Origin: an uncultured Treponema sp.
GTDB lineage: Bacteria; Spirochaetota; Spirochaetia; Treponematales; Treponemataceae
Reading direction: 5' to 3'
Assembly: GCF_945873775.1 (NCBI RefSeq)
Contig: NZ_CAMCEC010000008.1
Coordinates: 1-64,000 of the forward strand
Length of the DNA stretch: 64,000 nt
The notes beneath the pieces were generated by a model. That model had not been told where the DNA came from. It did not search any database and saw only the letters and a program-made list of their open reading frames with translations. The translations under genes and the position numbers were made by a program. The first letter of the stretch is position 1. Each line of letters opens with the position of its first letter. This document shows positions 43,859-56,408 of the stretch, piece after piece.

Positions 43859-45166
43859 ATGAAGCGTTTGCTGTATAAAGACTTGCTGAAATGGAAAAAT
43901 TCAGGCAGCCGTAAGCCTCTTATTCTTGAAGGCGCACGTCAGGTCGGAAAAACTTGGCTCCTAAAGGAATTCGCAAAAAACGAGTATGAAAATTTTCTAT
44001 ATATAAACTGTGAGACAGAAATATCCGTAAAAAATGTGTTTTCAGATTATGACACGCAAAGAATCATTCGTTCACTTTCTGCACTCAGCGGGCAGAACAT
44101 CTTGCCAAAAAAAACACTTATCATCCTTGATGAAATTCAGATTCTTCCGGTGGCGATTACCAGCCTTAAATATTTTTGTGAAAATGCAAATGAATATCAC
44201 GTTGCGGTAGCAGGTTCACTTCTCGGTGTAAAAATGCACGAAGGCACCGGGTTTCCGGTCGGAAAAGTTGACCATCTGACTCTTCATCCTCTTTCATTCA
44301 AGGAGTTTCTTCTTGCAATGAACAAAGATATTCTTGTTCAGTATCTTGACGAGCATAAATGGAATGAATATTCTGCCCTAAAAACTGAATTGACTGAACT
44401 TTTGCGGCAATATTATTTTACAGGAGGGATGCCGCTGGTGGTTCAAAAATACGTTGAAAATCAGGATTTGATAGAGGTCCGGCGGATTCAGAAAGATATT
44501 CTGCAAGACTATGAAGAAGATTTTTCAAAGCATATTCCAAATACGGAGCTGCCTAAAGTCACAGCAGTCTGGAATTCAATTCCAAGCCAGCTTGCAAAGG
44601 AAAACAAGAAATTCATCTGGGGCGCATTAAAAAAGGGGGCGCGTGCAAAAGAATTTGAGAATGCGGTTCAGTGGCTGATTGATGCAGGGCTTGTCCACAA
44701 AGTTCCGCGTTTGAAAAAAATCGAGTTGCCGGTCAAGTTCTATGAGAATTTTTCGGCCTTCAAGTTATTTTTTAATGATGTAGGCTTGCTCGGCGCCCTT
44801 TCTGATGTTCCTGCAAAAGAAATCCTTGTCAGCACAAAACTGATGACCGAATATAAAGGCGCTTTTACAGAACAGTATGTGGCACAGCAGTATTTTTCCG
44901 CATTGAGCTCAACATATATTTTGCCTCTTTATTATTATTCTAATGAAAATTCCACATTGGAAATTGATTTTGTATTTCAAAAAGAAAATGCTTTTCCGAT
45001 TGAAGTAAAGGCTGAAGAAAATCTAAGGGCAAAATCGCTCAGCACAATTCTAAAGGCAAACACTGAAATAACCGGAATCCGTTTTTCCATGTCAGACTAC
45101 CGCGAACAGGAACGGATGGTGAATGTGCCGCTTTATCTTGCCTTCTGGTATTTTGAATGGGTTTAA
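43859..45166 (+). CDS. AAA ATPase with DUF4143 domain
   Basis: A 435-aa protein. AAA_14-type ATPase at about 18-150: Walker A GARQVGKTWLLKEF near 25, Walker B LIILDEIQILPVAI near 87, sensor AVAGSLLGV. DUF4143 occupies about 200-375; the C-terminal strand region (TLEIDFVFQKENAFPIEVKAE) resembles a PD-(D/E)XK fold with D-x-V and E-x-K. The family is abundant in gut bacteria, often variable and isolated; function is not settled. Three 18-bp repeats precede it. It lies between a toxin-antitoxin pair and a recombinase. Confidence 0.85.
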   Translation: MKRLLYKDLLKWKNSGSRKPLILEGARQVGKTWLLKEFAKNEYENFLYINCETEISVKNVFSDYDTQRIIRSLSALSGQNILPKKTLIILDEIQILPVAITSLKYFCENANEYHVAVAGSLLGVKMHEGTGFPVGKVDHLTLHPLSFKEFLLAMNKDILVQYLDEHKWNEYSALKTELTELLRQYYFTGGMPLVVQKYVENQDLIEVRRIQKDILQDYEEDFSKHIPNTELPKVTAVWNSIPSQLAKENKKFIWGALKKGARAKEFENAVQWLIDAGLVHKVPRLKKIELPVKFYENFSAFKLFFNDVGLLGALSDVPAKEILVSTKLMTEYKGAFTEQYVAQQYFSALSSTYILPLYYYSNENSTLEIDFVFQKENAFPIEVKAEENLRAKSLSTILKANTEITGIRFSMSDYREQERMVNVPLYLAFWYFEWV

Positions 45167-45372: not shown

Positions 45373-46011
45373 ATGACGTACGGATACATTCGCGTAAGCA
45401 CGGACAGGCAGACTGTAGAAAACCAGCGGTTCGAGATTCAGGAATTTGCAAAACGGAACTCAATTTCTGTAGAAACTTGGATTGAAGAAACAGCGAGCGG
45501 AACGATTACGCCGGAACACCGCGAGCTTGGAAAACTTCTTGAAAAAATCCAAAAAGGCGATCTCATAATCTGCTCCGAACTTTCGCGGCTCGGAAGAAGC
45601 CTTTTTATGATAATGTCGATTTTGAACAAACTTATGGAAAAAGGCGCGCGCGTCTGGACAATCAAAGACGGCTACAGGCTTGGCGACGACATCCAGTCAA
45701 AAGTTCTGGCCTTCGCATTCGGGCTTTCCGCAGAAATCGAACGAAATCTTATCAGCCAGCGCACAAAAGAAGCCCTTGAACGGAAAAAAGCGGAAGGACA
45801 AAAACTCGGACGTCCGCTCGGAACAGAAAACGCCTCCTCAAAACTCGACGGCGCGGAACTCGGCACAACAATAATGCTTCTTCAAGGCATCTCCATAAAC
45901 CGTATTGCAAATCTTTACGGCGTCCACCGAAAAACCGTCCAAAAATTCATTTCAAAAAGACGCTTGGATTCATCAGAAAATATAACAAGAACACTTCAGC
46001 TCCTTGGCTAA
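45373..46011 (+). CDS. serine recombinase (resolvase/invertase family)
   Basis: A 212-aa small serine recombinase. The catalytic Ser is in YGYIRVSTDRQTVENQ (Ser9). The conserved LSRLGRSLFMIMSIL region holds the active-site Arg residues near 70, EIERNLISQRTKEALERKK is the long dimer helix, and the C-terminal HTH is GISINRIANLYGVHRKTVQKFI. The enzyme cuts and rejoins DNA via phosphoserine. It could mobilise or invert part of the defence island; I see no clear res or inversion sites beside it. Confidence 0.9.
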   Translation: MTYGYIRVSTDRQTVENQRFEIQEFAKRNSISVETWIEETASGTITPEHRELGKLLEKIQKGDLIICSELSRLGRSLFMIMSILNKLMEKGARVWTIKDGYRLGDDIQSKVLAFAFGLSAEIERNLISQRTKEALERKKAEGQKLGRPLGTENASSKLDGAELGTTIMLLQGISINRIANLYGVHRKTVQKFISKRRLDSSENITRTLQLLG

Positions 46012-46244: not shown

Positions 46245-47624
46245 ATGAATACAATGCAAACATCACAAAAAAACGAAGAAAATATCAGCACAAAAAACGT
46301 CCGTTTAAAGGATACAAAGGGGAAGGTCTTCCCCTCGCTTCAGCCTGCCGGGCAGTCTTTTGCTTCCCCTTCGCCTAGGGGCAACGCCCCTAAAACCCCA
46401 CGAAAATCTACGGCAAATTATGCAGTTTTAGATGAATTTACAGACGGAAAAATTTTTGATGAAAATTATGCACTTGCAAGTCATTATATTCAGCTTCAAG
46501 ATTCTATTGCTGGCGAAAAATATCGTAAGATTCTTGAGCAAAACGGACTTGATGTTTCAAAGTTTCCAGAAACAGATGATTTCAATGCAAAACTTGATGT
46601 TCCGTTTGGTACACCAAAAAATCCATCGTTTACTTTTATTGATTTGTTTGCCGGCATAGGCGGATTCCGGCTTGCGATGCAGTCCTGTGGCGGGCAGTGC
46701 GTTTTTTCTTCCGAGTGGGACGATGCCGCAAAGCAGACTTATTTTGAAAATTACGGAGAAGTTCCGTTCGGCGATATTACAAAGCCGGAAACTAAAGATT
46801 TTATTCCTGAAAAATTTGATGTGCTGTGCGCTGGCTTTCCGTGCCAGGCTTTTTCGATTGCTGGTTATCAGAAAGGATTTGCCGATGTCCGCGGAACGCT
46901 GTTTTTTGATGTCGCGGATATTTTGGAAAAGCATCGCCCAAAAGCATTTTATCTTGAAAATGTAAAAAACTTGAAATCGCATGACGAAGGGCGGACTTTT
47001 GCAAAGATTATGGATGTTCTGCAAAATCGGCTTGGATACATTGTTGGCTCAAAGATCATGAATCCGTGTGAATATGCGAATGTTCCTCAGAACCGGGAAC
47101 GAATTTTTATAGTCGGCTTTGATCCGAATCAAGTTGAGATTCCGCAAGAAAAATTTCACAATGGACAGTTTGATTTTCCTTTTCCAGAAAAAATTGAGCT
47201 TACAAAAGACATTCATGATGTGATTGATGATTCTGTTGAATCAGAAAATTTTTTCTACAAAGAAAATCATATCTATTACGACAGGATGAAAGACGTGATA
47301 GTAAATCCGGACACAGTTTATCAGTGGAGAAGAGTTTATATCCGCGAGAATAAAAGCGGAGTATGCCCGACTTTGACAGCGAATATGGGCGAGGGTGGAC
47401 ACAATGTTCCGATTGTCCGCACTTCAAAAGGAATAAGAAAGTTGACGCCAGAAGAATGTTTAGGTTTTCAAGGCTTTCCTGTCAATATTAAAAATTCTTT
47501 TAGATTTCCGAAGACAATTGCACAAAGCAAAAAATACAAGCAGTCAGGAAACAGCGTAACAGAACCGCTGATAGAACGCGTAGCAAGAAACGTAATTCAA
47601 TTTGTGCGGGAGAATGAGAGATGA
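46245..47624 (+). CDS. C5-cytosine DNA methyltransferase (cassette gene 1)
   Basis: A 459-aa methylase. All C5 motifs are visible: I FIDLFAGIGGFRLAM near 129, IV AGFPCQAFSIAGYQKGFADVRG with the catalytic Cys near 202, VI YLENVKNLKSHD, VIII VPQNRERIFIVGF, IX/X near the end (QSGNSVTEPLIERVARNVI). The recognition region between VIII and IX is short. The N-terminus has a 125-residue extension before motif I. Residues about 24-52 are encoded by a GC-rich palindromic stretch unlike the rest. It overlaps the nuclease gene by 4 bp and presumably protects host DNA from that nuclease. Confidence 0.92.
   Translation: MNTMQTSQKNEENISTKNVRLKDTKGKVFPSLQPAGQSFASPSPRGNAPKTPRKSTANYAVLDEFTDGKIFDENYALASHYIQLQDSIAGEKYRKILEQNGLDVSKFPETDDFNAKLDVPFGTPKNPSFTFIDLFAGIGGFRLAMQSCGGQCVFSSEWDDAAKQTYFENYGEVPFGDITKPETKDFIPEKFDVLCAGFPCQAFSIAGYQKGFADVRGTLFFDVADILEKHRPKAFYLENVKNLKSHDEGRTFAKIMDVLQNRLGYIVGSKIMNPCEYANVPQNRERIFIVGFDPNQVEIPQEKFHNGQFDFPFPEKIELTKDIHDVIDDSVESENFFYKENHIYYDRMKDVIVNPDTVYQWRRVYIRENKSGVCPTLTANMGEGGHNVPIVRTSKGIRKLTPEECLGFQGFPVNIKNSFRFPKTIAQSKKYKQSGNSVTEPLIERVARNVIQFVRENER
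46318..46392 (+). repeat. palindromic GC-rich element inside methylase gene
   Basis: Two perfect hairpins (AGGGGAAG/CTTCCCCT at 46318-46335; TAGGGGC/GCCCCTA at 46376-46392) flank a third palindrome (CTGCCGGGCAG), all within the reading frame and without stop. The surroundings are AT-rich coding DNA. Confidence 0.75.
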
Positions 47625-48787
47625 GTTTTGTGGATGAATGGAAACAAAACAAGGAATATTTTTCTTTGCTCGAACTCATGGCGCGCCTTTCAAATCTTTT
47701 TAGCGACAGCTCAATTCCATTCTTGCATTACAGAGTTACAGAAAATCTTTTCTGTAAATATTATAAAGCGGAAAATCTTTCGCGTTCAGATACAGCTTAT
47801 GATGCAAAAACTGGCTCGTTTGGAGTTGGAATAAAAACATTTACTTTGACAAATAATGCAAGCACTGAAAAAGTCGCGGAATTCAATTCAATAAGTTCAG
47901 AATTGAAAAAATATAAAGGCTATGATTTAGCCTATCAGCTTGCAGTCGCACGCAATGAAAGAATGATGTTGGGCCAGCGGCTTTATGGCATTTCAGATGG
48001 TTGCTATCACATTATAGGACGGGTTGAGAATGGTCTTACGGTTTTTAACTCTTCCTATTCTCTTTTGAATACAGAAAAAATTCATGTGATAAAAGATACA
48101 GAAAAATCGCTTCAATTTGATGACGGAAAAGAGTTCTATAATTTTAATTATTCAAAAAGCACCTTGTTCAAGCATTTTGAAGTTCCTGAAGATTCTAAAG
48201 AAAAACAAGAAATTTCAGTTTCTATTATTCAAGATCCTTATGAGCTTCTGCGGAAACTTATTGACACAGAGGATTACGAAGGCAAATACACAGATATTTA
48301 CAATATTCATAAAGTAATCCACGAGCAAGTCGCAAGCTCCAAAAAGCAATTAAGTTTTGGAATTGACTATGTATATCTGCCACTTTATTCAGAAAGGCTA
48401 AAAGAAGTTCCCTTAAAATCTGGCCTGAACCAATGGAACGCAGGTGGCAGGGCTAGGGATGCAAATGAGGTTTATATTCCGATTCCTCTTTCTATTCACC
48501 ATGATTTTCCAGCTTTTTTCCCTCCGCGTGATACTTCATTTACGCTTCATCTTCCAAACGGTTCTTCAATGTCTGCAAAAATCTGCCAGGACGGCGGAAA
48601 AGCCTTGATGTCAAATCCGAATAAAGAATTAGGAAAATGGCTTTTGCGTGATGTTCTTCACCTGAAAGAAGGCGAGCTTTTGACAATGGAAAAGCTCAAT
48701 CGCTTTGGTTTTGACAGCGTGATTATTACAAAAATCGATTCAGAAAATTTCAAAATAGATGTCCGGAGACGAAATGAAAATGAATGA
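47621..48787 (+). CDS. restriction nuclease, PD-(D/E)XK plus B3-like domain (cassette gene 2)
   Basis: A 388-aa protein. The N-terminal third has a PD-(D/E)XK-like core: Glu41 in TENLFCKYY, Asp61 in SDTAYDAKTG and Lys72 in FGVGIKTF. The C-terminal 140 residues (from about LNQWNAGGRARDANEVYIPI, then FFPPRDTSFTLHLPNGSSM, then GKWLLRDVLHLKEGE) resemble the B3-like DNA-binding domain of NgoFVII/BfiI-type enzymes. It should read the sequence that the methylase protects. ATG overlaps the methylase stop; its own stop lies inside the next gene. Confidence 0.75.
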   Translation: MSFVDEWKQNKEYFSLLELMARLSNLFSDSSIPFLHYRVTENLFCKYYKAENLSRSDTAYDAKTGSFGVGIKTFTLTNNASTEKVAEFNSISSELKKYKGYDLAYQLAVARNERMMLGQRLYGISDGCYHIIGRVENGLTVFNSSYSLLNTEKIHVIKDTEKSLQFDDGKEFYNFNYSKSTLFKHFEVPEDSKEKQEISVSIIQDPYELLRKLIDTEDYEGKYTDIYNIHKVIHEQVASSKKQLSFGIDYVYLPLYSERLKEVPLKSGLNQWNAGGRARDANEVYIPIPLSIHHDFPAFFPPRDTSFTLHLPNGSSMSAKICQDGGKALMSNPNKELGKWLLRDVLHLKEGELLTMEKLNRFGFDSVIITKIDSENFKIDVRRRNENE

Positions 48788-51401
48788 TTTTGAAAGACAG
48801 CAAGAAGAAAATTTAATTCAAGAAATAGTTGCATGGAAATTAAGACGCCCTGAAGAATCTTGGGAATCTATTGACAAAAGCTTACTCATTGTTTTGGATA
48901 ACGCTAGAGAATTTAAGGAAAATTATCCTGAAGATTTTATAAACTTAAAAGAAAAATGGATTTCAGAGGCAAGAAGAATAATTGAATTAAAAACTGATTT
49001 TCATGGAATTTCAGCAAAACACGAACGCTGGTTCTCTTTTGATGAACTGTATGACTCGAAATACTGGAGCCATTTTGAGCAGCAGATGAAATCTGAAAAT
49101 TGGGATAAAAATCGTCTTGAAATAAATAAGCAACAGTCAATTGAAATCATAAACCAGCTTTCAAATCCGCGGAGGTTCGATACTTCAAAAGAAGATGCAA
49201 CAAGAAAAGGATTGGTTTATGGACACGTTCAGTCCGGAAAGACTGCCCAGATGTCTTCGATTATTTCAATGTACGCATCTTGCGGATGCAGGTTTTTCAT
49301 TGTTTTTTCTGGAATAACAAATTCTCTAAGGAATCAGACTCAAAGCCGTTTTAGAAAAGATTTAGGAATTGATAAAATGGGTGGCTGGGAGTTGCTTAAG
49401 GAAAAATTAGGAAAAGACGATGTCTGCATAGAAGGAAAAATAAACGGCAGCAATCCAGTTCTTGGTGTATTCAAAAAAAATCCTCATGTTCTCTGCCGCC
49501 TAAAAGAGTATTTACAGAATATAAATAGCGATACATTTTGGAAAAATAAAACAGTTCTTGTCATTGATGACGAATGTGACAATGCTTCCATGAATGTTGC
49601 AAAGCAGTTTGATAATGATGGTTTTGCAACAGGAAAAAGAAGCTCTATCAATTCGTTGATTACAGACGTATTAAATATTTTTGATAAGTATTGCTATGTA
49701 GGATTTACGGCAACTCCATTTGCAAATGTCCTTAATGAAAAGCCTGGAAAAGACAGCCTGTATCCAGAAGACTTTATTTATCCTTTGACTATAAGCTCTA
49801 AATATTATAGCGCGCGAAAATTATTTGGCTCGTCAAATGATAATCCTGATAATCCCGAGCCATTGCTTGATGTTGTGAATTTTGTAGAAACAGAAGAGAT
49901 AAATCCAAAGTCCAATGACTATGCAGATGTTCCTGAATCATTAAAGAATGCAATATTTTACTTTATTTTAGCCACAGCATGCAAATACTATCGTGGTTTC
50001 AGCAACAAGCACTCTTCAATGCTTATCCATGTGGATTTAAAAATTTCCACGCATGCTGTCGTAAACAAATCTGTTGAGCTTTTTATAGAGAATATAAAAC
50101 AAAATCCATCTGACTTTTTTAGTTATATGGAGAAAGTTTGGAATTCTGAAAAAGACAGAGTTTCATTTGAAACTGTAAAACAGCTTTTTAATTATTCAGA
50201 AGAAGATAAAGAAAAATACAAGATTCCTGATTTTAACCGGCTGAAAGACTTTATTTTAGAGGTCGCAGATAAAATCGAAACCGTAGTTGACAATAGTTCT
50301 GTACCTTTGGAAGAGAGGCTTCATTATCCTGATGATGAAAGCAAGGTTTATATTGTAATTGGTGGAAATACTCTTTCTCGTGGTCTTACCCTTGAAGGAC
50401 TTATTGTAAGCTATTTTTACAGAACATCAAAATTATATGACACATTGCTGCAAATGGGGCGCTGGTTTGGATATAGAATTGGCTATGAAGATTTGCCAAG
50501 AATCTGGACAACAGAACAAATAGCAAAAAATTTTTCTTTGCTTGCAGATGTGGAAGACGAATTACAGGAACAGTTCACAGATTATGGCAACGGTCTTACT
50601 CCTGCTGAGATAGCTCCCAGAATACGAGTTCTTCCTCTTCTTCAAATCACAAGAAAATTAGCAATGCAGAATGCAAAAATTACTGGCATAAATTATGCAG
50701 GACAAAGACCATCGACTTTATTCTTTGAGCGCACAAATAAAGAATGGCTTTTGCATAATCAGATTGCCACAAGAGAATTTCTTGATGGAATAGCTCAAAC
50801 TCCAACAGAAAAAAATGGGGGTGTTATTTATTCGAATATTCCAATTTCTAAAATCCGGCAGTTTATTGAAAAATATAAAATTTGTGAGTCCAACAATGCT
50901 TGCCGAAAAAATTTAATTTTGAAATATTTCGAAAAAATCAATTCCAAAAACTTTTTGCAAAACTGGAATGTCGCAATAATTCAAAACAAAAAAGGCCGGG
51001 AATACCAGATTTGTTCAAAGCTAAAAGTTCATCTTGTTAACCGCAGCCGTCTGGATCCGAAAAGCAAGAATGATTCAATAGCAAACATAAAAGTTTTGGG
51101 TCAACCGCAGAATATGCTTGTTGATACAGATATTCCTGATTCTGAAAAAGATGAATTCAGGCCTTTAAAAATGTTTCTTCAGCGCCATAAATATTTTGAA
51201 GAAAAAGGAATCGCTGAGCCTGGGCTTTTGCTTATATACCCGATTGATAAAGACAGTAAGCCAAAATCAAATCAGACAGGCAGACTGCCATTGGATGCGG
51301 CAGAAGACGTTATCGGAATAACGCTTGTTTTTCCAAAAGACAAGAATATTGAATTAAATTCATATATGACAATTTCGTTAGATGGAGTGGAGCATGATTG
51401 A
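48774..51401 (+). CDS. Z1-domain superfamily 2 helicase/ATPase (cassette gene 3)
   Basis: An 875-aa protein. GHVQSGKTAQMSSII (Walker A) is near residue 148, VLVIDDECDNAS (Walker B) near 265, GFTATPFANVL (motif III) near 309, and the Z1 signature near 527-570 (GGNTLSRGLTLEGLIVSYF, then YDTLLQMGRWFGYRIGYEDL). The last 250 residues are not a known domain. Z1 proteins are predicted helicases of restriction systems that also carry MORC-type ATPases. ATG 48774 follows GGAGACGAA and overlaps the nuclease gene by 14 bp; an ATG at 48780 is possible. Confidence 0.9.
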   Translation: MKMNDFERQQEENLIQEIVAWKLRRPEESWESIDKSLLIVLDNAREFKENYPEDFINLKEKWISEARRIIELKTDFHGISAKHERWFSFDELYDSKYWSHFEQQMKSENWDKNRLEINKQQSIEIINQLSNPRRFDTSKEDATRKGLVYGHVQSGKTAQMSSIISMYASCGCRFFIVFSGITNSLRNQTQSRFRKDLGIDKMGGWELLKEKLGKDDVCIEGKINGSNPVLGVFKKNPHVLCRLKEYLQNINSDTFWKNKTVLVIDDECDNASMNVAKQFDNDGFATGKRSSINSLITDVLNIFDKYCYVGFTATPFANVLNEKPGKDSLYPEDFIYPLTISSKYYSARKLFGSSNDNPDNPEPLLDVVNFVETEEINPKSNDYADVPESLKNAIFYFILATACKYYRGFSNKHSSMLIHVDLKISTHAVVNKSVELFIENIKQNPSDFFSYMEKVWNSEKDRVSFETVKQLFNYSEEDKEKYKIPDFNRLKDFILEVADKIETVVDNSSVPLEERLHYPDDESKVYIVIGGNTLSRGLTLEGLIVSYFYRTSKLYDTLLQMGRWFGYRIGYEDLPRIWTTEQIAKNFSLLADVEDELQEQFTDYGNGLTPAEIAPRIRVLPLLQITRKLAMQNAKITGINYAGQRPSTLFFERTNKEWLLHNQIATREFLDGIAQTPTEKNGGVIYSNIPISKIRQFIEKYKICESNNACRKNLILKYFEKINSKNFLQNWNVAIIQNKKGREYQICSKLKVHLVNRSRLDPKSKNDSIANIKVLGQPQNMLVDTDIPDSEKDEFRPLKMFLQRHKYFEEKGIAEPGLLLIYPIDKDSKPKSNQTGRLPLDAAEDVIGITLVFPKDKNIELNSYMTISLDGVEHD

Positions 51402-53325
51402 TTTTAAGTTTGATGAAGTTCCGTTCAGACGAGGAATGGGAACTATAAACGCAAGCGGAGCATCCAAGACTTTAAACGGTTCTTCTTTGACTGATACAGA
51501 AATCTTATTAAGAGAAGCAGTTCAAAATTCTTTTGATAGCCGATTAAAAGAAAGAAAATTTGATGAAAAAACAGGAACGCCAGTATCTAAATATTTGCCC
51601 CTGAATTTTTCAATTCGGGCTTTCAGTTTCTCTTCAGACCAAATGGTTTTCATACAAAAGCTGTTTAATTCAGAAAATTCAGATTCGTACTATGCCAAAA
51701 ATGTACAGAAATATATAAAAACATCTTCTCTAAATATTGAGATAAGCGATATTAATACTACTGGTCTAATAGGTTTTCCTGGAATTACAGAGAAAAAGGA
51801 AAATCAGAATTTTGCAAATTTTGTCTATTTTACAGGAAATGACAAATCGCTTGATTCAAATGACGGAGGCTCGTACGGGTTTGGAAAAGCGGCGTTCTTT
51901 TTATATTCTCAAGCCAGAACAATAATAATTTATACAAGAATAAAATCAGAAAGCACCTCGAATTATCAATCCCGGCTTATTGCTGTTTCGATGGATGAAA
52001 GAATAGATAATAGATGCTGGTGGGGAGAAAAAAAACAAAGTGATAATGAAAGCGGAGTTTATGCGTCTCCAATTTTAGGAAAACTTGCAGATGAGATTGC
52101 TGAAGCAATCGGCATGAATGTCTTTAACGAAATGCAGACAGGAACAAAAATTCTTATTTTAAATTCCCGTCCTCGGCTTTTTCCTCAATACGAAAATGGT
52201 AACGAAAAAACAATCGATGATATATTCAGATACGACATTCCTCAGTATTTAGTTCATTGGTACTGGAACAAAATAATTGCGAAAAAAGTTATTTTTGATA
52301 TTGCCTATAAAAATGAAAAGATAGAGCTTGATAATCCATATGAAGTATATCCTTACAAATATTTTATAAATGCCTATAAAAGACTTAACGCAATAAAAAA
52401 GAAAGAGATAAAAGCTGATGGAAAAAGAGGAATTGAAATTTCTCAGGAACGGCCTAGCGTAAAGCTTGGAATTGCATGCATTGAAAAGACTGCGCCAAAA
52501 AAATCTAAATATGAAGAATTGATACCAGTTTTAAAGACTTCACAGCCACTTGTTGCTTTCATGAGAGGAATTGGAAATATTGTTTATTATGGAAAGTATA
52601 CCGTCGGACCAGAGAACCTTAATGAAACGTGTTTTGGAGTTTTTGCCTGTGACACGAAGTCTTTTTCTAATGGAGAAACCGAAGGCGAAATAGATCGGTA
52701 TTTTCGTGGAATAGAAAACCAAACACATACTCGTTGGGAACATAAAAATGATATGTTTCCTCACAATTATTTGAAAACTGTTGAAAATAAAATTGACCTT
52801 CTTGTAAGGTCGAATTGTCTTTTTGAAGAAATTGATGATTCTGCGGCAAATATTTCAGTTATGATTCAACGCACTTTAGGAGCAAAACTTCTTCCATATA
52901 AATTGCCCGTTGGCGGAGCAAAGAAAACTTTGAAGCCTGCTGTTCAAATAGAAGCAAAGGCATCAAATAAAAAATCATCAATTGCTAAAACTGGAAATTC
53001 GTATATTGAAATCGATTCAAAAACAAACGAAAAATATATTTATGTTCAATACAAGATAAATGTTTTAAAGGATAAGGCTGTCAAGATAAGTAATATAGTT
53101 CCCAAAATAGAAACTTTAGATGCTGGAGACTATTTTGAGGATAATGGAAGTTACCTAAAGTTTTCCGGAACATATAAAAAAGATAAAGATGGCACGATTT
53201 CTATGACAGATGCAAGGTTTCCAAAGATATTTAAATTTCCAGAAATTTGTTATTTTAAGATAAGATGCCAGAAAGACTGTTCGTTTGATTTAAAAATTGA
53301 CTGGGAGGAAGTTGATGCACAATAA
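51394..53325 (+). CDS. MORC-like GHKL ATPase (cassette gene 4)
   Basis: A 643-aa protein with a GHKL ATPase at about 1-250: N box EILLREAVQNSFDSRL near 36, motif SDINTTGL near 119 (D-x-x-x-x-G), and lid/G2 box DGGSYGFGKAAFFLYS near 157. This arrangement is that of MutL/Hsp90/MORC-type ATPases. The C-terminal 350 residues include a transducer-like part and a beta-rich end. Prokaryotic MORC relatives are predicted to remodel or clamp DNA for restriction. ATG 51394 overlaps the Z1 stop by 8 bp and has GGAG close before it. Confidence 0.85.
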   Translation: MIDFKFDEVPFRRGMGTINASGASKTLNGSSLTDTEILLREAVQNSFDSRLKERKFDEKTGTPVSKYLPLNFSIRAFSFSSDQMVFIQKLFNSENSDSYYAKNVQKYIKTSSLNIEISDINTTGLIGFPGITEKKENQNFANFVYFTGNDKSLDSNDGGSYGFGKAAFFLYSQARTIIIYTRIKSESTSNYQSRLIAVSMDERIDNRCWWGEKKQSDNESGVYASPILGKLADEIAEAIGMNVFNEMQTGTKILILNSRPRLFPQYENGNEKTIDDIFRYDIPQYLVHWYWNKIIAKKVIFDIAYKNEKIELDNPYEVYPYKYFINAYKRLNAIKKKEIKADGKRGIEISQERPSVKLGIACIEKTAPKKSKYEELIPVLKTSQPLVAFMRGIGNIVYYGKYTVGPENLNETCFGVFACDTKSFSNGETEGEIDRYFRGIENQTHTRWEHKNDMFPHNYLKTVENKIDLLVRSNCLFEEIDDSAANISVMIQRTLGAKLLPYKLPVGGAKKTLKPAVQIEAKASNKKSSIAKTGNSYIEIDSKTNEKYIYVQYKINVLKDKAVKISNIVPKIETLDAGDYFEDNGSYLKFSGTYKKDKDGTISMTDARFPKIFKFPEICYFKIRCQKDCSFDLKIDWEEVDAQ

Positions 53326-54256
53326 AATATATACTTATAAAACTGTTTCTCTGGAATCTGGAATAATTCAGGCTGAATGGCAGGTTTACGGGCGTCCAAT
53401 ACCTGCGTCACACGAAATAAAATCCTGGAAAAAAAACGCGGATTTACAAATAAACTGTAATCTATATGTTTCAGCAAAAGAGCTTGATTCTTTTATTTCT
53501 AAAAATGCAGAAGCTTCATTTTATATTTTATGGAACTCTTTATCGGGAAGAAACGGAACTTCACTGCAAGGCTGCGCATTTGTTCAAAAGTATGAAAATA
53601 AAAGAAACGAAAACGTAAAAGAATATAATTTTTCTTGCATTGTTCCAGGAACTAAAATTGCGGGCGACACAGAAATTTCTTTGGTTCTGGCAATTTCTTC
53701 TGAAGATAAATTAGAGAAAAAGTCAGAATTTGCAACAGAAAAAGGATCGGTTATATTCAGAACTTCTGTGCTCTTGTATCTTGAAGGCGGTCAAGCTCTT
53801 TTTCCTGTAAAAGCAGTTTCTTTTAAGGAGCGTTCTGGAATTGCAAGAAATGCCTTGTATTATCTCCGCAAAAAATATATTGATTTGGACAGCAATTTTA
53901 ATGCGGCATACACTTTATTTTTTAATATAGAACATCCGCTTTTCAAAAAGATAAATTCAGATTTAGAGAATGATGTTGCCGCAAATTATCTGTTGAAAAT
54001 GATTATGTTTGATGTGTATAGAACTATTGTTTTTGATGCTCTTGATAAGGAACACGGACTTGATGAGCTTTCAGAGTCATTTGAGGAAAATGCTTTTACT
54101 TTACGCGCTGTTTATTCAAAAATTCTGAATGAAGTAAAAGAAAGGTACTTTCCAGAAAAGAATTTGGCTTCCTTAAAAGAAATGGTAAATCAAGGCGAAG
54201 AGCAAAGAAATTCTCTGTATACGGCAATTCAGGAATATGTTTTTGGAGATGAATAA
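53315..54256 (+). CDS. unrecognised protein (cassette gene 5)
   Basis: A 313-aa protein. GGGAGGAAGTTG before ATG 53315 fixes the start; it overlaps gene 4 by 11 bp. The N-terminal half (to about 190) is beta-rich (YKTVSLESGIIQAEWQVYG, VIFRTSVLLYLEGG), the C-terminal half helical (FKERSGIARNALYYLRKKYI, DLENDVAANYLLKMIMFDVY). I see no nuclease or ATP-binding motif. The pairing with a MORC-type ATPase and the placement before the DUF6339-like gene suggest an adaptor or structural subunit. Confidence 0.7.
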   Translation: MHNKIYTYKTVSLESGIIQAEWQVYGRPIPASHEIKSWKKNADLQINCNLYVSAKELDSFISKNAEASFYILWNSLSGRNGTSLQGCAFVQKYENKRNENVKEYNFSCIVPGTKIAGDTEISLVLAISSEDKLEKKSEFATEKGSVIFRTSVLLYLEGGQALFPVKAVSFKERSGIARNALYYLRKKYIDLDSNFNAAYTLFFNIEHPLFKKINSDLENDVAANYLLKMIMFDVYRTIVFDALDKEHGLDELSESFEENAFTLRAVYSKILNEVKERYFPEKNLASLKEMVNQGEEQRNSLYTAIQEYVFGDE

Positions 54257-54257
54257 G

Positions 54258-54998
54258 ATGAATGACGAAGATATAATCAGAGTTTATCCTGTAATTGATG
54301 ACGAGCCGGAAAAAATATATGAAAAATTAGAAAGCAGAGTATTTGTTTTTGAAGAATTAAGTGAAAACAAGCTTGTTCCTCCAGGAGTTGGAGATATGGT
54401 TTTGTATGAGGAACTTGATTTATTGCGGCAGAATGTAATTGCTCTTGCTAGAAAATACGGTTTTGGTGATATTAATCATAATGTTGGCAACTCTTTAAAA
54501 CTGAAATTTGATAAAGAGCTTGGAAGCTTAATTTATGAAAAAATGAAAATTACACCTTCTGTTGCTGCAACACTTCCTATGTGGCAGTTTTTAAATTTGC
54601 AATTATTGCCTGATGTCGTGTTTTGGCGTTGGGGAAATTCAAAAGAACATTTTTACTCAGAAAGAAGAAATTATCTTGGGACACAATGGTGGAGATATTA
54701 TCTTTTTTCTGATTCAGAAGAATCTTTAAAAATCTATTCAAAACTGAATGATGCTGAAATTGCAGAATTGTATGAACGTTCTGGAAGCAGAGGATTGCCA
54801 GAGCATATTTTTGAAATTTCAAAATGGTTTGCGCAGCTTTCCAGAAATATTCTTATAAAAAATGAAAGAGAAATGTTTCGCTCTGTAATAAAAAGATATA
54901 ATGCAGAACTTGGATTCAGAAATTATTTTTCACTTGATGAAAATGCCAAGTTTTCAATCTTTAAGAATTGCTTTGATGATACTGCTGGTTTAAAGTAG
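54258..54998 (+). CDS. DUF6339-like protein (cassette gene 6)
   Basis: A 246-aa protein, mainly helical after residue 60. ITPSVAATLPMWQFLNLQLLP, then PDVVFWRWGNSKEHF, then RRNYLGTQWWRYYLF resemble what I recall of DUF6339, a family found with Z1 helicases. The function is unknown. ATG 54258 is preferred (GGAG 9 nt upstream, directly after the stop of gene 5); a start at 54249 or 54237 would overlap it. It is the last gene of the cassette; no clear terminator follows. Confidence 0.7.
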   Translation: MNDEDIIRVYPVIDDEPEKIYEKLESRVFVFEELSENKLVPPGVGDMVLYEELDLLRQNVIALARKYGFGDINHNVGNSLKLKFDKELGSLIYEKMKITPSVAATLPMWQFLNLQLLPDVVFWRWGNSKEHFYSERRNYLGTQWWRYYLFSDSEESLKIYSKLNDAEIAELYERSGSRGLPEHIFEISKWFAQLSRNILIKNEREMFRSVIKRYNAELGFRNYFSLDENAKFSIFKNCFDDTAGLK

Positions 54999-55038
54999 GG
55001 CTTATTATTTTTTATGACCGATTTCCATCTCCCATTCT

Positions 55039-55200
55039 GTCTGTACATATTTCCCAGGTTGGCTGTATAAGAGCCCCAGCCAGATTGTGCTTACGCCCCA
55101 ATCATACTGTATAGCCGCCCCGGTTTGTCTGTGCCGCTTATACAGTTTGACTGGGCTTGCTATACAGTCAGTCTGTAGCTGCTGTACAGTTTGTCTGTAG
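55039..55200 (+). repeat. 22-bp phased repeats upstream of XRE gene
   Basis: The gap 54999-55357 contains repeated TATACAG/TGTACAG plus TTGTCTG words. TATACAG starts at 55139 and 55161 and TGTACAG at 55183, exactly 22 bp apart (two helical turns). Looser copies (TCTGTACA, CTGTATAA, CTGTATAG) lie upstream from 55039. They could be operators for the XRE regulator. Confidence 0.65.
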
Positions 55201-55357
55201 TTAAAAAGGTTTCTTTTTTTAATAATATTTACAAATTTGTGAAAAATATTTTATAAATTGCTTGATTTATTTATAAAACTGATATATATTTTACTTAGAT
55301 GCTAAACGAGAAAGAATCCAAAAGGTTCATTAAAGCCTTAGAACGAGAGGTACATTT

Positions 55358-55762
55358 ATGGGAGTAACGGCATTTGGAAAAATTTTGAGAAAAAGAAGAA
55401 TTGATTCTTCGGAAATTCTTGGAGATATGGCAAAGCGGCTAGATGTAAGCGCGGCTTACCTTTCTTCAATTGAAAACGGTCTGCGTGAAATTCCGGACTC
55501 TTTTGTTGAAAAGATTTCAAAGGAATACGGTCTTTCAGAGGCAGAAAAACAGGAGCTTGAAGAAGCGCAGGCGCAGTCAAAGGGCAGTGTGAATGTTCCC
55601 CTTGGCGAGCAGAAGGATTCAAGCGAATATCTTGAGACAGCTGTAATGTTTGCCAAGGATTTTTCAAAGCTTACAGAAGCGCAGGTCAAGCTGATGAAAG
55701 AGCTGCTTGAAAAGTTTCAGGCGGAATCTTCGGGAGAGAAAAATGGAAGTGGTGCAGTATGA
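55358..55762 (+). CDS. XRE-family regulator
   Basis: A 134-aa protein with an XRE/Cro HTH at about residues 5-65 (LRKRRIDSSEILGDMAKRLD, then VSAAYLSSIENGLREIPDSF). The C-terminal 60 residues are helical and charged (FAKDFSKLTEAQVKLMKELLEKF) and could dimerise. GAGAGG precedes the ATG. It overlaps the ImmA/IrrE-like gene by 20 bp, the classic repressor/anti-repressor-protease pair of mobile elements. Its likely operators are the 22-bp repeats upstream. Confidence 0.87.
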   Translation: MGVTAFGKILRKRRIDSSEILGDMAKRLDVSAAYLSSIENGLREIPDSFVEKISKEYGLSEAEKQELEEAQAQSKGSVNVPLGEQKDSSEYLETAVMFAKDFSKLTEAQVKLMKELLEKFQAESSGEKNGSGAV

Positions 55763-56408
55763 GACACAATTAAAAGACGTAAAATATTCAGAAACTTTAG
55801 TTCTTTCTGAAAACGAGATTAAAATAGCTTCTTTCTGGAGCCACCTGCTTTGCACGGCCGCCACGAACAGGAAGTTTGACCCGCTCTTTGTAATGGAAAA
55901 CATAATTCCCCGTTTTGACAGGACTTTCAACTATCTTATTGAGCCGCAGGATTTGTGGAATCATGGAAAAGACGTTGCGGCTTTTTACAATGCGGCTCAG
56001 AACGTGATTGTCATAAGAAGCGATGTCTACGAAGGTGCGCAGAATGGAAGCTATATCGACGTGATTACGGTTGCGCATGAGGTAGTGCACTGTATCCAGT
56101 CGATTATCTTGAGATTCATTAGAATTTTTGAGTGCGCGGAATTCAAAAAGGAGCTTTCAAAAATCAAGGCTGAGCAGATTCAGGAGCATGAGTTTCAGAC
56201 TGATTCGATAATGCGGCTTTTGTTCTCTCCGGAAGAAATCACAAAGGGCAGAACACAGGAGGAGGTTCTGGACGAGTATGTGCTAAAGCCAGTTCTTTCG
56301 CTTCTTTTCATTCTGATAAAGAATGTAGGAAAACAGTTCCTGAATTTGCTAAAGGAAGAAAATGCAAAAAGTCCTGCCTTAAATAAGAACTTCCTGGAGG
56401 CGGTCTAA
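55743..56408 (+). CDS. ImmA/IrrE-like metallopeptidase
   Basis: A 221-aa protein. VITVAHEVVHCIQ gives the HExxH zinc motif near residue 113 (HEVVH), and HEFQTDSI near 153 provides the further acidic ligand region. In the ImmA/ImmR model the protease cleaves the XRE repressor upon stress, which switches on nearby genes. The start is 55743 (GGGAGAGAAA upstream), overlapping the XRE gene; the ATG at 55707 lies well inside it. The C-terminal 50 residues are helical (LKPVLSLLFILIKNVGKQF). Confidence 0.78.
   Translation: MEVVQYETQLKDVKYSETLVLSENEIKIASFWSHLLCTAATNRKFDPLFVMENIIPRFDRTFNYLIEPQDLWNHGKDVAAFYNAAQNVIVIRSDVYEGAQNGSYIDVITVAHEVVHCIQSIILRFIRIFECAEFKKELSKIKAEQIQEHEFQTDSIMRLLFSPEEITKGRTQEEVLDEYVLKPVLSLLFILIKNVGKQFLNLLKEENAKSPALNKNFLEAV

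What the first reader, a model, noticed from the sequence alone, without database searches (positions are those of the whole stretch)
46245..54998. Six-gene restriction-like cassette: C5 methylase, B3-type nuclease, Z1 helicase, MORC-like ATPase, unknown protein, DUF6339-like protein
All six genes run in one direction; the first five overlap (4, 14, 8 and 11 bp) and the sixth begins 1 bp after the fifth. Each enzymatic member keeps its catalytic motifs. The MORC-Z1 link to restriction systems was predicted by Iyer, Abhiman and Aravind (2008), but I know of no worked-out mechanism. A testable model: the methylase marks self; the B3 domain reads the unmarked site; the Z1 helicase translocates; the MORC-type ATPase clamps or compacts DNA; genes 5 and 6 assemble the complex.
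Basis: partly seen in the sequence, partly recalled or inferred. Interest (0 to 1): 0.85.

Follow-up and report, generated by a model that had tools for sequence, protein, structure and literature searches.

The report
Restriction cassette with swapped-in nuclease
A bacterium carries six tightly packed genes that look like a DNA-restriction defence system: a widespread helicase/MORC-type core has lost its usual nuclease and is joined to a complete, normally free-standing restriction enzyme with its methylase, which shows how such defences are assembled from interchangeable parts.

Summary
The six genes are real, intact and packed as described. They are two blocks. Genes 1-2 (C5 methylase + nuclease) are a type II restriction-modification pair found without the other genes at 22 other sampled loci. 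The nuclease is a predicted ThaI-like PD-(D/E)XK domain joined to an NgoAVII-like B3 domain; it is not PLD. Genes 3-6 (Z1 helicase, paraMORC2-type GHKL ATPase, beta-sandwich/helical protein, DUF6339 protein) are the core of a widespread system: 77 of 80 surveyed relatives keep all four, and their trees co-vary (r 0.77-0.91) while the methylase is exchanged. Those systems also carry a DUF4420 nuclease (76/80). The window and its genome show none. Here the B3 nuclease takes that place. A similar six-part set, convergently arranged on a CglI-type M-R-N operon, occurs in Corynebacterium (L170). Best reading: an ATP-dependent restriction system in which gene 2 recognises and cuts unmethylated DNA, Z1 translocates, and genes 4-6 clamp, license and dock (inferred, about 50%). 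Main rival: an autonomous type II pair beside a block that lost its nuclease. The kind is known (Iyer 2008; CglI/NgoAVII; probably Miller 2022 'type I'; PADLOC PDC-M33); the nuclease exchange is a new variant.

The parts
46245..47624 (+). gene 1, C5-cytosine DNA methyltransferase (459 aa)
   Evidence: PF00145 3.3e-83; closest to methylases that partner gene-2 homologues, 53-55% identity; motifs I, IV, VI, VIII, X intact
47621..48787 (+). gene 2, type II restriction nuclease: predicted ThaI-like PD-(D/E)XK N-domain + NgoAVII-like B3 DNA-binding C-domain (388 aa)
   Evidence: PF20731 1.4e-13, PADLOC REase_II 2e-121; AF2 model pLDDT 82: C-domain Z 13.5 to R.NgoAVII B3 (4rd5), N-domain Z 9.2 over 176 residues to 3ndh; E41, D61, K72 invariant in 13 homologues
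48774..51401 (+). gene 3, SF2 helicase/translocase with Z1 domain (longer start at 48759 possible)
   Evidence: PF10593 1e-64, MzaC 2e-80; motifs; groups with Z1 proteins of MORC-core systems, support 0.96 for the immediate clade, away from CglI/NgoAVII-type N proteins
51394..53325 (+). gene 4, GHKL ATPase of paraMORC2 type (longer start at 51382)
   Evidence: GHKL motifs and E445-xxx-H449 invariant in 47 aligned members; PDC-M33A 9e-14
53315..54256 (+). gene 5, predicted N-terminal beta-sandwich (about residues 24-174) + C-terminal helical region (TTG start at 53297 possible)
   Evidence: AF2 pLDDT 85; fold matches are to common Ig/arrestin-like sandwiches at about the background Z of 8; conserved between genes 4 and 6 in the survey
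54258..54998 (+). gene 6, DUF6339-family protein (longer start at 54237)
   Evidence: family alignment: 37 of 47 members hit PF19866 and 22 of 47 hit PADLOC PDC-M33C, though the window protein alone does not

Best explanation
A horizontally acquired, ATP-dependent restriction-modification system with an exchanged nuclease. Gene 1 methylates a cytosine in the host's copies of a short site. Gene 2 recognises the unmethylated site with its B3 domain and cuts with a PD-(D/E)XK domain, in place of the DUF4420 nuclease that normally accompanies genes 3-6. Gene 3 is the ATP-driven translocase started by gene 2 at an unmethylated site, as N.CglI is by R.CglI. Gene 4 is a GHKL ATPase that closes on DNA and licenses or enforces cleavage, with genes 5 and 6 as non-enzymatic adaptors that dock the nuclease/recognition part. 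Shown: gene content, intact motifs, gene-2 domain make-up (predicted structure), core co-inheritance, no DUF4420 found. Inferred: every activity, the coupling of gene 2 to genes 3-6, and the clamp and docking roles.
For: Genes overlap and run as one unit. Genes 3-6 and DUF4420 co-diversify (r 0.77-0.91; null maximum 0.30) while the C5 methylase is exchanged (r 0.26-0.38). DUF4420 is in 76 of 80 core loci, but none was found in the window (six-frame search at full sensitivity) or its genome (whose controls did not ring). In Z1-tree neighbours L027 and L141 DUF4420 is the last gene of the operon. Gene 2 has its own nuclease fold and B3 reader. B3 nucleases sit beside the gene 4-6 trio in three further loci: L170 Corynebacterium (CglI-type M-R-N convergent with the trio, no DUF4420 found), L143 (PLD-B3 nuclease + C5 methylase + trio, no Z1 or DUF4420 found) and L030 (gene 1-2 homologues next to a complete core). 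CglI shows that a B3 nuclease and a Z1 ATPase cut together with ATP.
Against: Gene 2's family works, by its distribution, without Z1: 22 other loci have no genes 3-6 nearby, so dependence on gene 3 is not implied. Gene 3 is not a CglI-type N protein, so the known R-N contact need not exist. Gene 2's C-terminus ends before the 'GSYExF' tail of most homologues, at the junction with gene 3. No second copy of this exact gene order was found.
Confidence: 0.5

Rival explanations
1. Two neighbours, not one machine: genes 1-2 are an autonomous type II restriction-modification system inserted in front of a core (genes 3-6) that lost its nuclease and is idle or decaying; the shared operon is a by-product of insertion.
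For: Gene 1-2 pairs stand alone widely; gene 1 groups with those stand-alone methylases; DUF4420, otherwise a co-inherited subunit, was not found.
Against: All four core genes are intact with motifs kept; tight overlaps with Shine-Dalgarno-like starts; recurrent B3-nuclease/trio association elsewhere (L170, L143, L030).
Confidence: 0.32
2. Genes 3-6 act without cutting: the Z1 translocase loads the GHKL ATPase and its partners, which clamp or compact invading DNA and block its use, while genes 1-2 restrict independently as a second layer.
For: The gene 4-6 trio occurs without Z1 or DUF4420 in haloarchaea (L018, L019); PADLOC lists the trio on its own as candidate PDC-M33 A/B/C.
Against: Nearly all Z1-containing cores keep a nuclease, and DUF4420 co-diversifies with them.
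Confidence: 0.13
3. A member of the CglI/NgoAVII restriction type with three accessory genes, i.e. gene 3 is an ordinary N protein.
For: Same order M-R-Z1 and the same B3 recognition domain.
Against: Gene 3 falls with MORC-core Z1 proteins, tree distance to N proteins 5.4-6.8 against 2.5; Helicase_II model 1.1e-45 for gene 3 against 1.8e-195 for a true N protein; nuclease domain is not PLD.
Confidence: 0.05

Closest known systems
CglI / NgoAVII restriction-modification systems (PMC4267653)
   Same: C5 methylase, nuclease with B3 recognition domain, Z1/SF2 ATPase, in the order M-R-N
   Different: their nuclease domain is PLD (here predicted ThaI-like PD-(D/E)XK); their N protein is another Z1 branch; no MORC trio in the described three-gene systems
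Z1/restriction-fold/MORC-paraMORC operons of Iyer, Abhiman and Aravind 2008 (PMC2292703)
   Same: Z1-type helicase with DThhQXuRhFG motif, C5 methylase, GHKL ATPase with paraMORC2 ExxxH
   Different: their conserved restriction-fold nuclease (probably DUF4420) is absent; a B3 type II enzyme is present
Putative defence system 'type I' of Miller et al. 2022 (PMC9523054)
   Same: six genes: Z1 protein, nuclease, C5 methylase, three further genes (probably the same trio; supplement not read)
   Different: their nuclease is a PD-(D/E)XK protein printed as DUF4220, presumably DUF4420; here it is replaced
Mza (mzaABCDE)
   Same: Z1 protein related to MzaC
   Different: score far below the MzaC cut-off; no DUF4420 (MzaD) or AIPR gene found
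PADLOC candidate system PDC-M33 (A, B, C)
   Same: A = GHKL ATPase, C = DUF6339, B = protein between them; the same kind of trio
   Different: candidate defined as three genes; here in one operon with Z1 and a restriction pair; window gene 5 does not match model B

Membership tests
CglI/NgoAVII type | C5 methylase | tested here: met
   PF00145 3.3e-83
CglI/NgoAVII type | nuclease with C-terminal B3 domain | tested here: met
   PF20731 1.4e-13; Z 13.5 to 4rd5
CglI/NgoAVII type | N-terminal PLD nuclease domain | tested here: not met
   no PF09565 hit in gene 2 or its homologues, while true PLD-B3 proteins score 1e-26 to 1e-30; model resembles PD-(D/E)XK enzymes
CglI/NgoAVII type | N protein of the Helicase_II/CglI branch | tested here: not met
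   tree and model scores
CglI/NgoAVII type | ATP-dependent cleavage at unmethylated site | not testable with these tools
   needs biochemistry
Miller 2022 type I | Z1 protein and C5 methylase | tested here: met
Miller 2022 type I | PD-(D/E)XK DUF4420 protein | tested here: not met
   no DUF4420 hit or remnant in the window; none in the genome with PF14390 (in which no control genome rang)
Miller 2022 type I | three additional genes identical with the trio | tested here: inconclusive
   trio is in the survey loci; the paper's gene list is in a supplement not readable here
paraMORC2 (Iyer 2008) | GHKL ATP-binding motifs | tested here: met
   invariant E45, N49, D52, D123, G128, G163, G168 and others in 47 aligned sequences
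paraMORC2 (Iyer 2008) | ExxxH in the C-terminal part of the S5 domain | tested here: met
   E445 and H449 invariant in 47 aligned sequences; S5 domain itself not modelled
Mza | MzaC at equivalog cut-off | tested here: not met
   328 bits against 1500
PADLOC PDC-M33 | subunits A, B and C | tested here: inconclusive
   A 9e-14 in the window; B and C not hit by the window proteins; relatives' DUF6339 hit C, and the L170 trio hits A, B and C

The most novel reading that the evidence does not exclude
Genes 4-6 are a general module of a GHKL ATPase with two adaptors that can be plugged onto different nucleases (DUF4420, ThaI-B3, PLD-B3), different Z1 helicases or none, with DUF6339 as the dock for the DNA-reading part; in ten actinobacterial loci that part is a methylase domain that lost its catalytic Cys and may act as a sensor. 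The window would be a natural nuclease swap that proves the module portable.
Probability: 0.3. Interest if true: 0.75.

Novelty: new variant of a known kind. Interest (0 to 1): 0.55.

Why it matters
It ties together strands described apart (Iyer's paraMORC2 operons, CglI/NgoAVII, PADLOC's PDC-M33 and probably Miller's 'type I') and shows that the GHKL/DUF6339 core can be found with a nuclease other than DUF4420. If the chimera works, it is a compact natural test of what prokaryotic MORC-type ATPases add to restriction, an open question since 2008 that also bears on eukaryotic MORC proteins.

Tried and rejected
Viral-contig scan with gene 4 alone: no relative. First genome scan with a mixed alignment: no conserved stretch. 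Gene 2 as a DUF4420 relative: hhalign probability 0.2%. Gene 2 as PLD enzyme, as relatives are named in records: rejected by Pfam and predicted structure. DUF4420 remnant downstream of gene 6: none, best E 0.65 over the whole window. PDB sequence searches with genes 2-6: nothing of use. Fold search for gene 5: only common sandwich folds, Z about 8 or less, no function read from it. Matching the L170 PDC-M33B protein to the gene-5 family by profile: not significant, so their kinship rests on position.

Full report
Observation. The six ORFs exist, intact, on one strand. Family searches give: gene 1 C5 methylase; gene 2 a nuclease with an NgoFVII-type B3 domain; gene 3 a Z1 helicase; gene 4 only a weak match to PADLOC PDC-M33A; genes 5 and 6 nothing directly. 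Catalytic motifs of genes 1, 3 and 4 are present. The cassette is lower in G+C than its flanks. Gene 4 is found in 3 of 345 genomes of the phylum and in none of the other sampled genomes of the genus, so it was most likely acquired horizontally.

Gene 2. Thirteen homologues keep E41, D61, K72 and the B3 residues. The AlphaFold2 model (pLDDT 82) matches R.NgoAVII's B3 domain at Z 13.5 and, with its N-terminal part, the restriction enzyme structure 3ndh (which I know as R.ThaI) at Z 9.2 over 176 residues, followed by HinP1I, SwaI, NaeI and EcoRV. This is a PD-(D/E)XK enzyme with a B3 reader and not a PLD enzyme; the G-x-K form of the motif is unusual, so the exact active site is inferred. It is unrelated in profile to DUF4420. 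In the window the protein ends before the tail found in most homologues.

Genes 1-2 are a free-standing pair. Homologues of gene 2 in plasmids (Finegoldia, Priestia, Caldicellulosiruptor, Lactobacillus), viral contigs, spirochaetes and Bacteroidota make 22 loci without genes 3-6; a C5 methylase lies in the fetched stretch of 19 of them. Gene 1 groups with those methylases. Some stretches are short, so absence is only of near neighbours.

Genes 3-6 are a conserved core. A scan of 84,980 genomes found 228 relatives of gene 4; the best 80 were read. All three genes 4-6 were found in 79, and with Z1 in 77. DUF4420 is in 76, nearly always between Z1 and gene 4 (PF14390 3e-43 in L034). A C5 methylase is in the stretch of 72. 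Distance matrices of Z1, gene 4, gene 5, gene 6 and DUF4420 correlate at 0.77-0.91, methylase with any of them at 0.26-0.38, permutation maximum 0.30. The survey was seeded with gene 4, so it cannot count Z1 or DUF6339 proteins that live without it. The matrices share relatedness of hosts, but the methylase shares this too and does not follow.

The window's variant. Its Z1 falls with L027, L141 and L142 (support 0.96), inside the MORC-core clade and far from CglI-type N proteins. In L027 and L141 DUF4420 is the last gene. No trace of DUF4420 is in the window and none was found in the genome (no control genome rang in that search, so it alone does not prove absence). The simplest history is loss of the last gene and gain of a methylase-nuclease pair in front. 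Independent parallels: L170 in Corynebacterium has a CglI-type operon (C5 methylase, PLD-B3 nuclease, Z1 N protein) converging on a trio whose proteins match PDC-M33 A, B and C, with no DUF4420 found; L143 has a PLD-B3 nuclease, C5 methylase and the trio without Z1; L030 has gene 1-2 homologues beside a complete core.

Genes 4-6. Gene 4 keeps the GHKL motifs and an invariant ExxxH, the mark given for paraMORC2. Gene 5 is predicted to be a beta-sandwich followed by helices, with only background-level fold matches. In ten actinobacterial loci DUF6339 is the N-terminal part of one protein with a C5-methylase domain in which the motif IV PCQ has become LPR, while motifs I and VI are largely kept; separate C5 methylase genes that keep PCQ follow in those examined. 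This links DUF6339 to DNA or methylation reading.

Mechanism. In CglI the B3 nuclease binds its site and switches on the Z1 ATPase, and cleavage follows ATP use. By analogy gene 2 would recognise and cut, gene 3 translocate, gene 4 act as an ATP-dependent clamp or licence, and genes 5-6 dock. Only the parts list, the predicted folds and the co-inheritance are shown; all activities are inferred. The main rival, an autonomous type II pair next to a core without a nuclease, is not excluded.

Known status. Iyer et al. 2008 described Z1/restriction-fold/MORC and paraMORC operons. Miller et al. 2022 predicted a six-gene Z1/PD-(D/E)XK/methylase system, whose three extra genes are probably this trio. 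PADLOC holds the trio as PDC-M33. No paper in the library mentions DUF6339, and paraMORC2 appears only in the 2008 paper. The exchange of nuclease and the DUF6339-dead methylase fusion were not found described, but subscription papers and supplements were not searchable.

Noticed in passing
L037, L039, L046, L061, L068, L077, L089, L094, L097, L099 (e.g. L077 12846-14693): DUF6339 fused to a C5-methylase domain whose catalytic PCQ is replaced by LPR in all ten; separate C5 methylase genes with PCQ follow in L037, L077 and L094, the ones examined. A possible methylation or sequence sensor.
   Followed up: partly
L170 728-8435: Corynebacterium island with a CglI-type M-R(PLD-B3)-N operon converging on a MORC/PDC-M33B/DUF6339 trio.
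   Followed up: partly
L142 1845-17873: Two tandem copies of MORC-gene5-DUF6339, each with a DUF4420 gene, plus two C5 methylases and one Z1 gene in a Bacteroidota contig.
   Followed up: no
L018 1-13519 and L019 9680-13259: Haloarchaeal plasmids with the trio but no Z1 or DUF4420 found nearby; L018 has two diverging copies around a C5 methylase.
   Followed up: partly
L015/L016 6525-15439: Rhizobiaceae plasmids with an OLD-like AAA/TOPRIM ATPase and a UvrD-like helicase (Gabija-like pair) directly before Z1-MORC-gene5-DUF6339, DUF4420 not found in the stretch.
   Followed up: partly
window 45373-46011 and 43859-45166: Serine recombinase and an AAA_14/DUF4143 ATPase just upstream of the cassette.
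   Followed up: no
window 55358-56408: HTH protein followed by an overlapping ORF with a HEVVH zinc-peptidase-like motif (ImmA/IrrE-like pair?), no Pfam match for the second.
   Followed up: no
window 55030-55210: Intergenic stretch after gene 6 with repeated tgtctgta/ctatacag-like words of unknown role.
   Followed up: no
G000:C25:6908-7801 (L108): A second C5 methylase elsewhere in the same genome.
   Followed up: no
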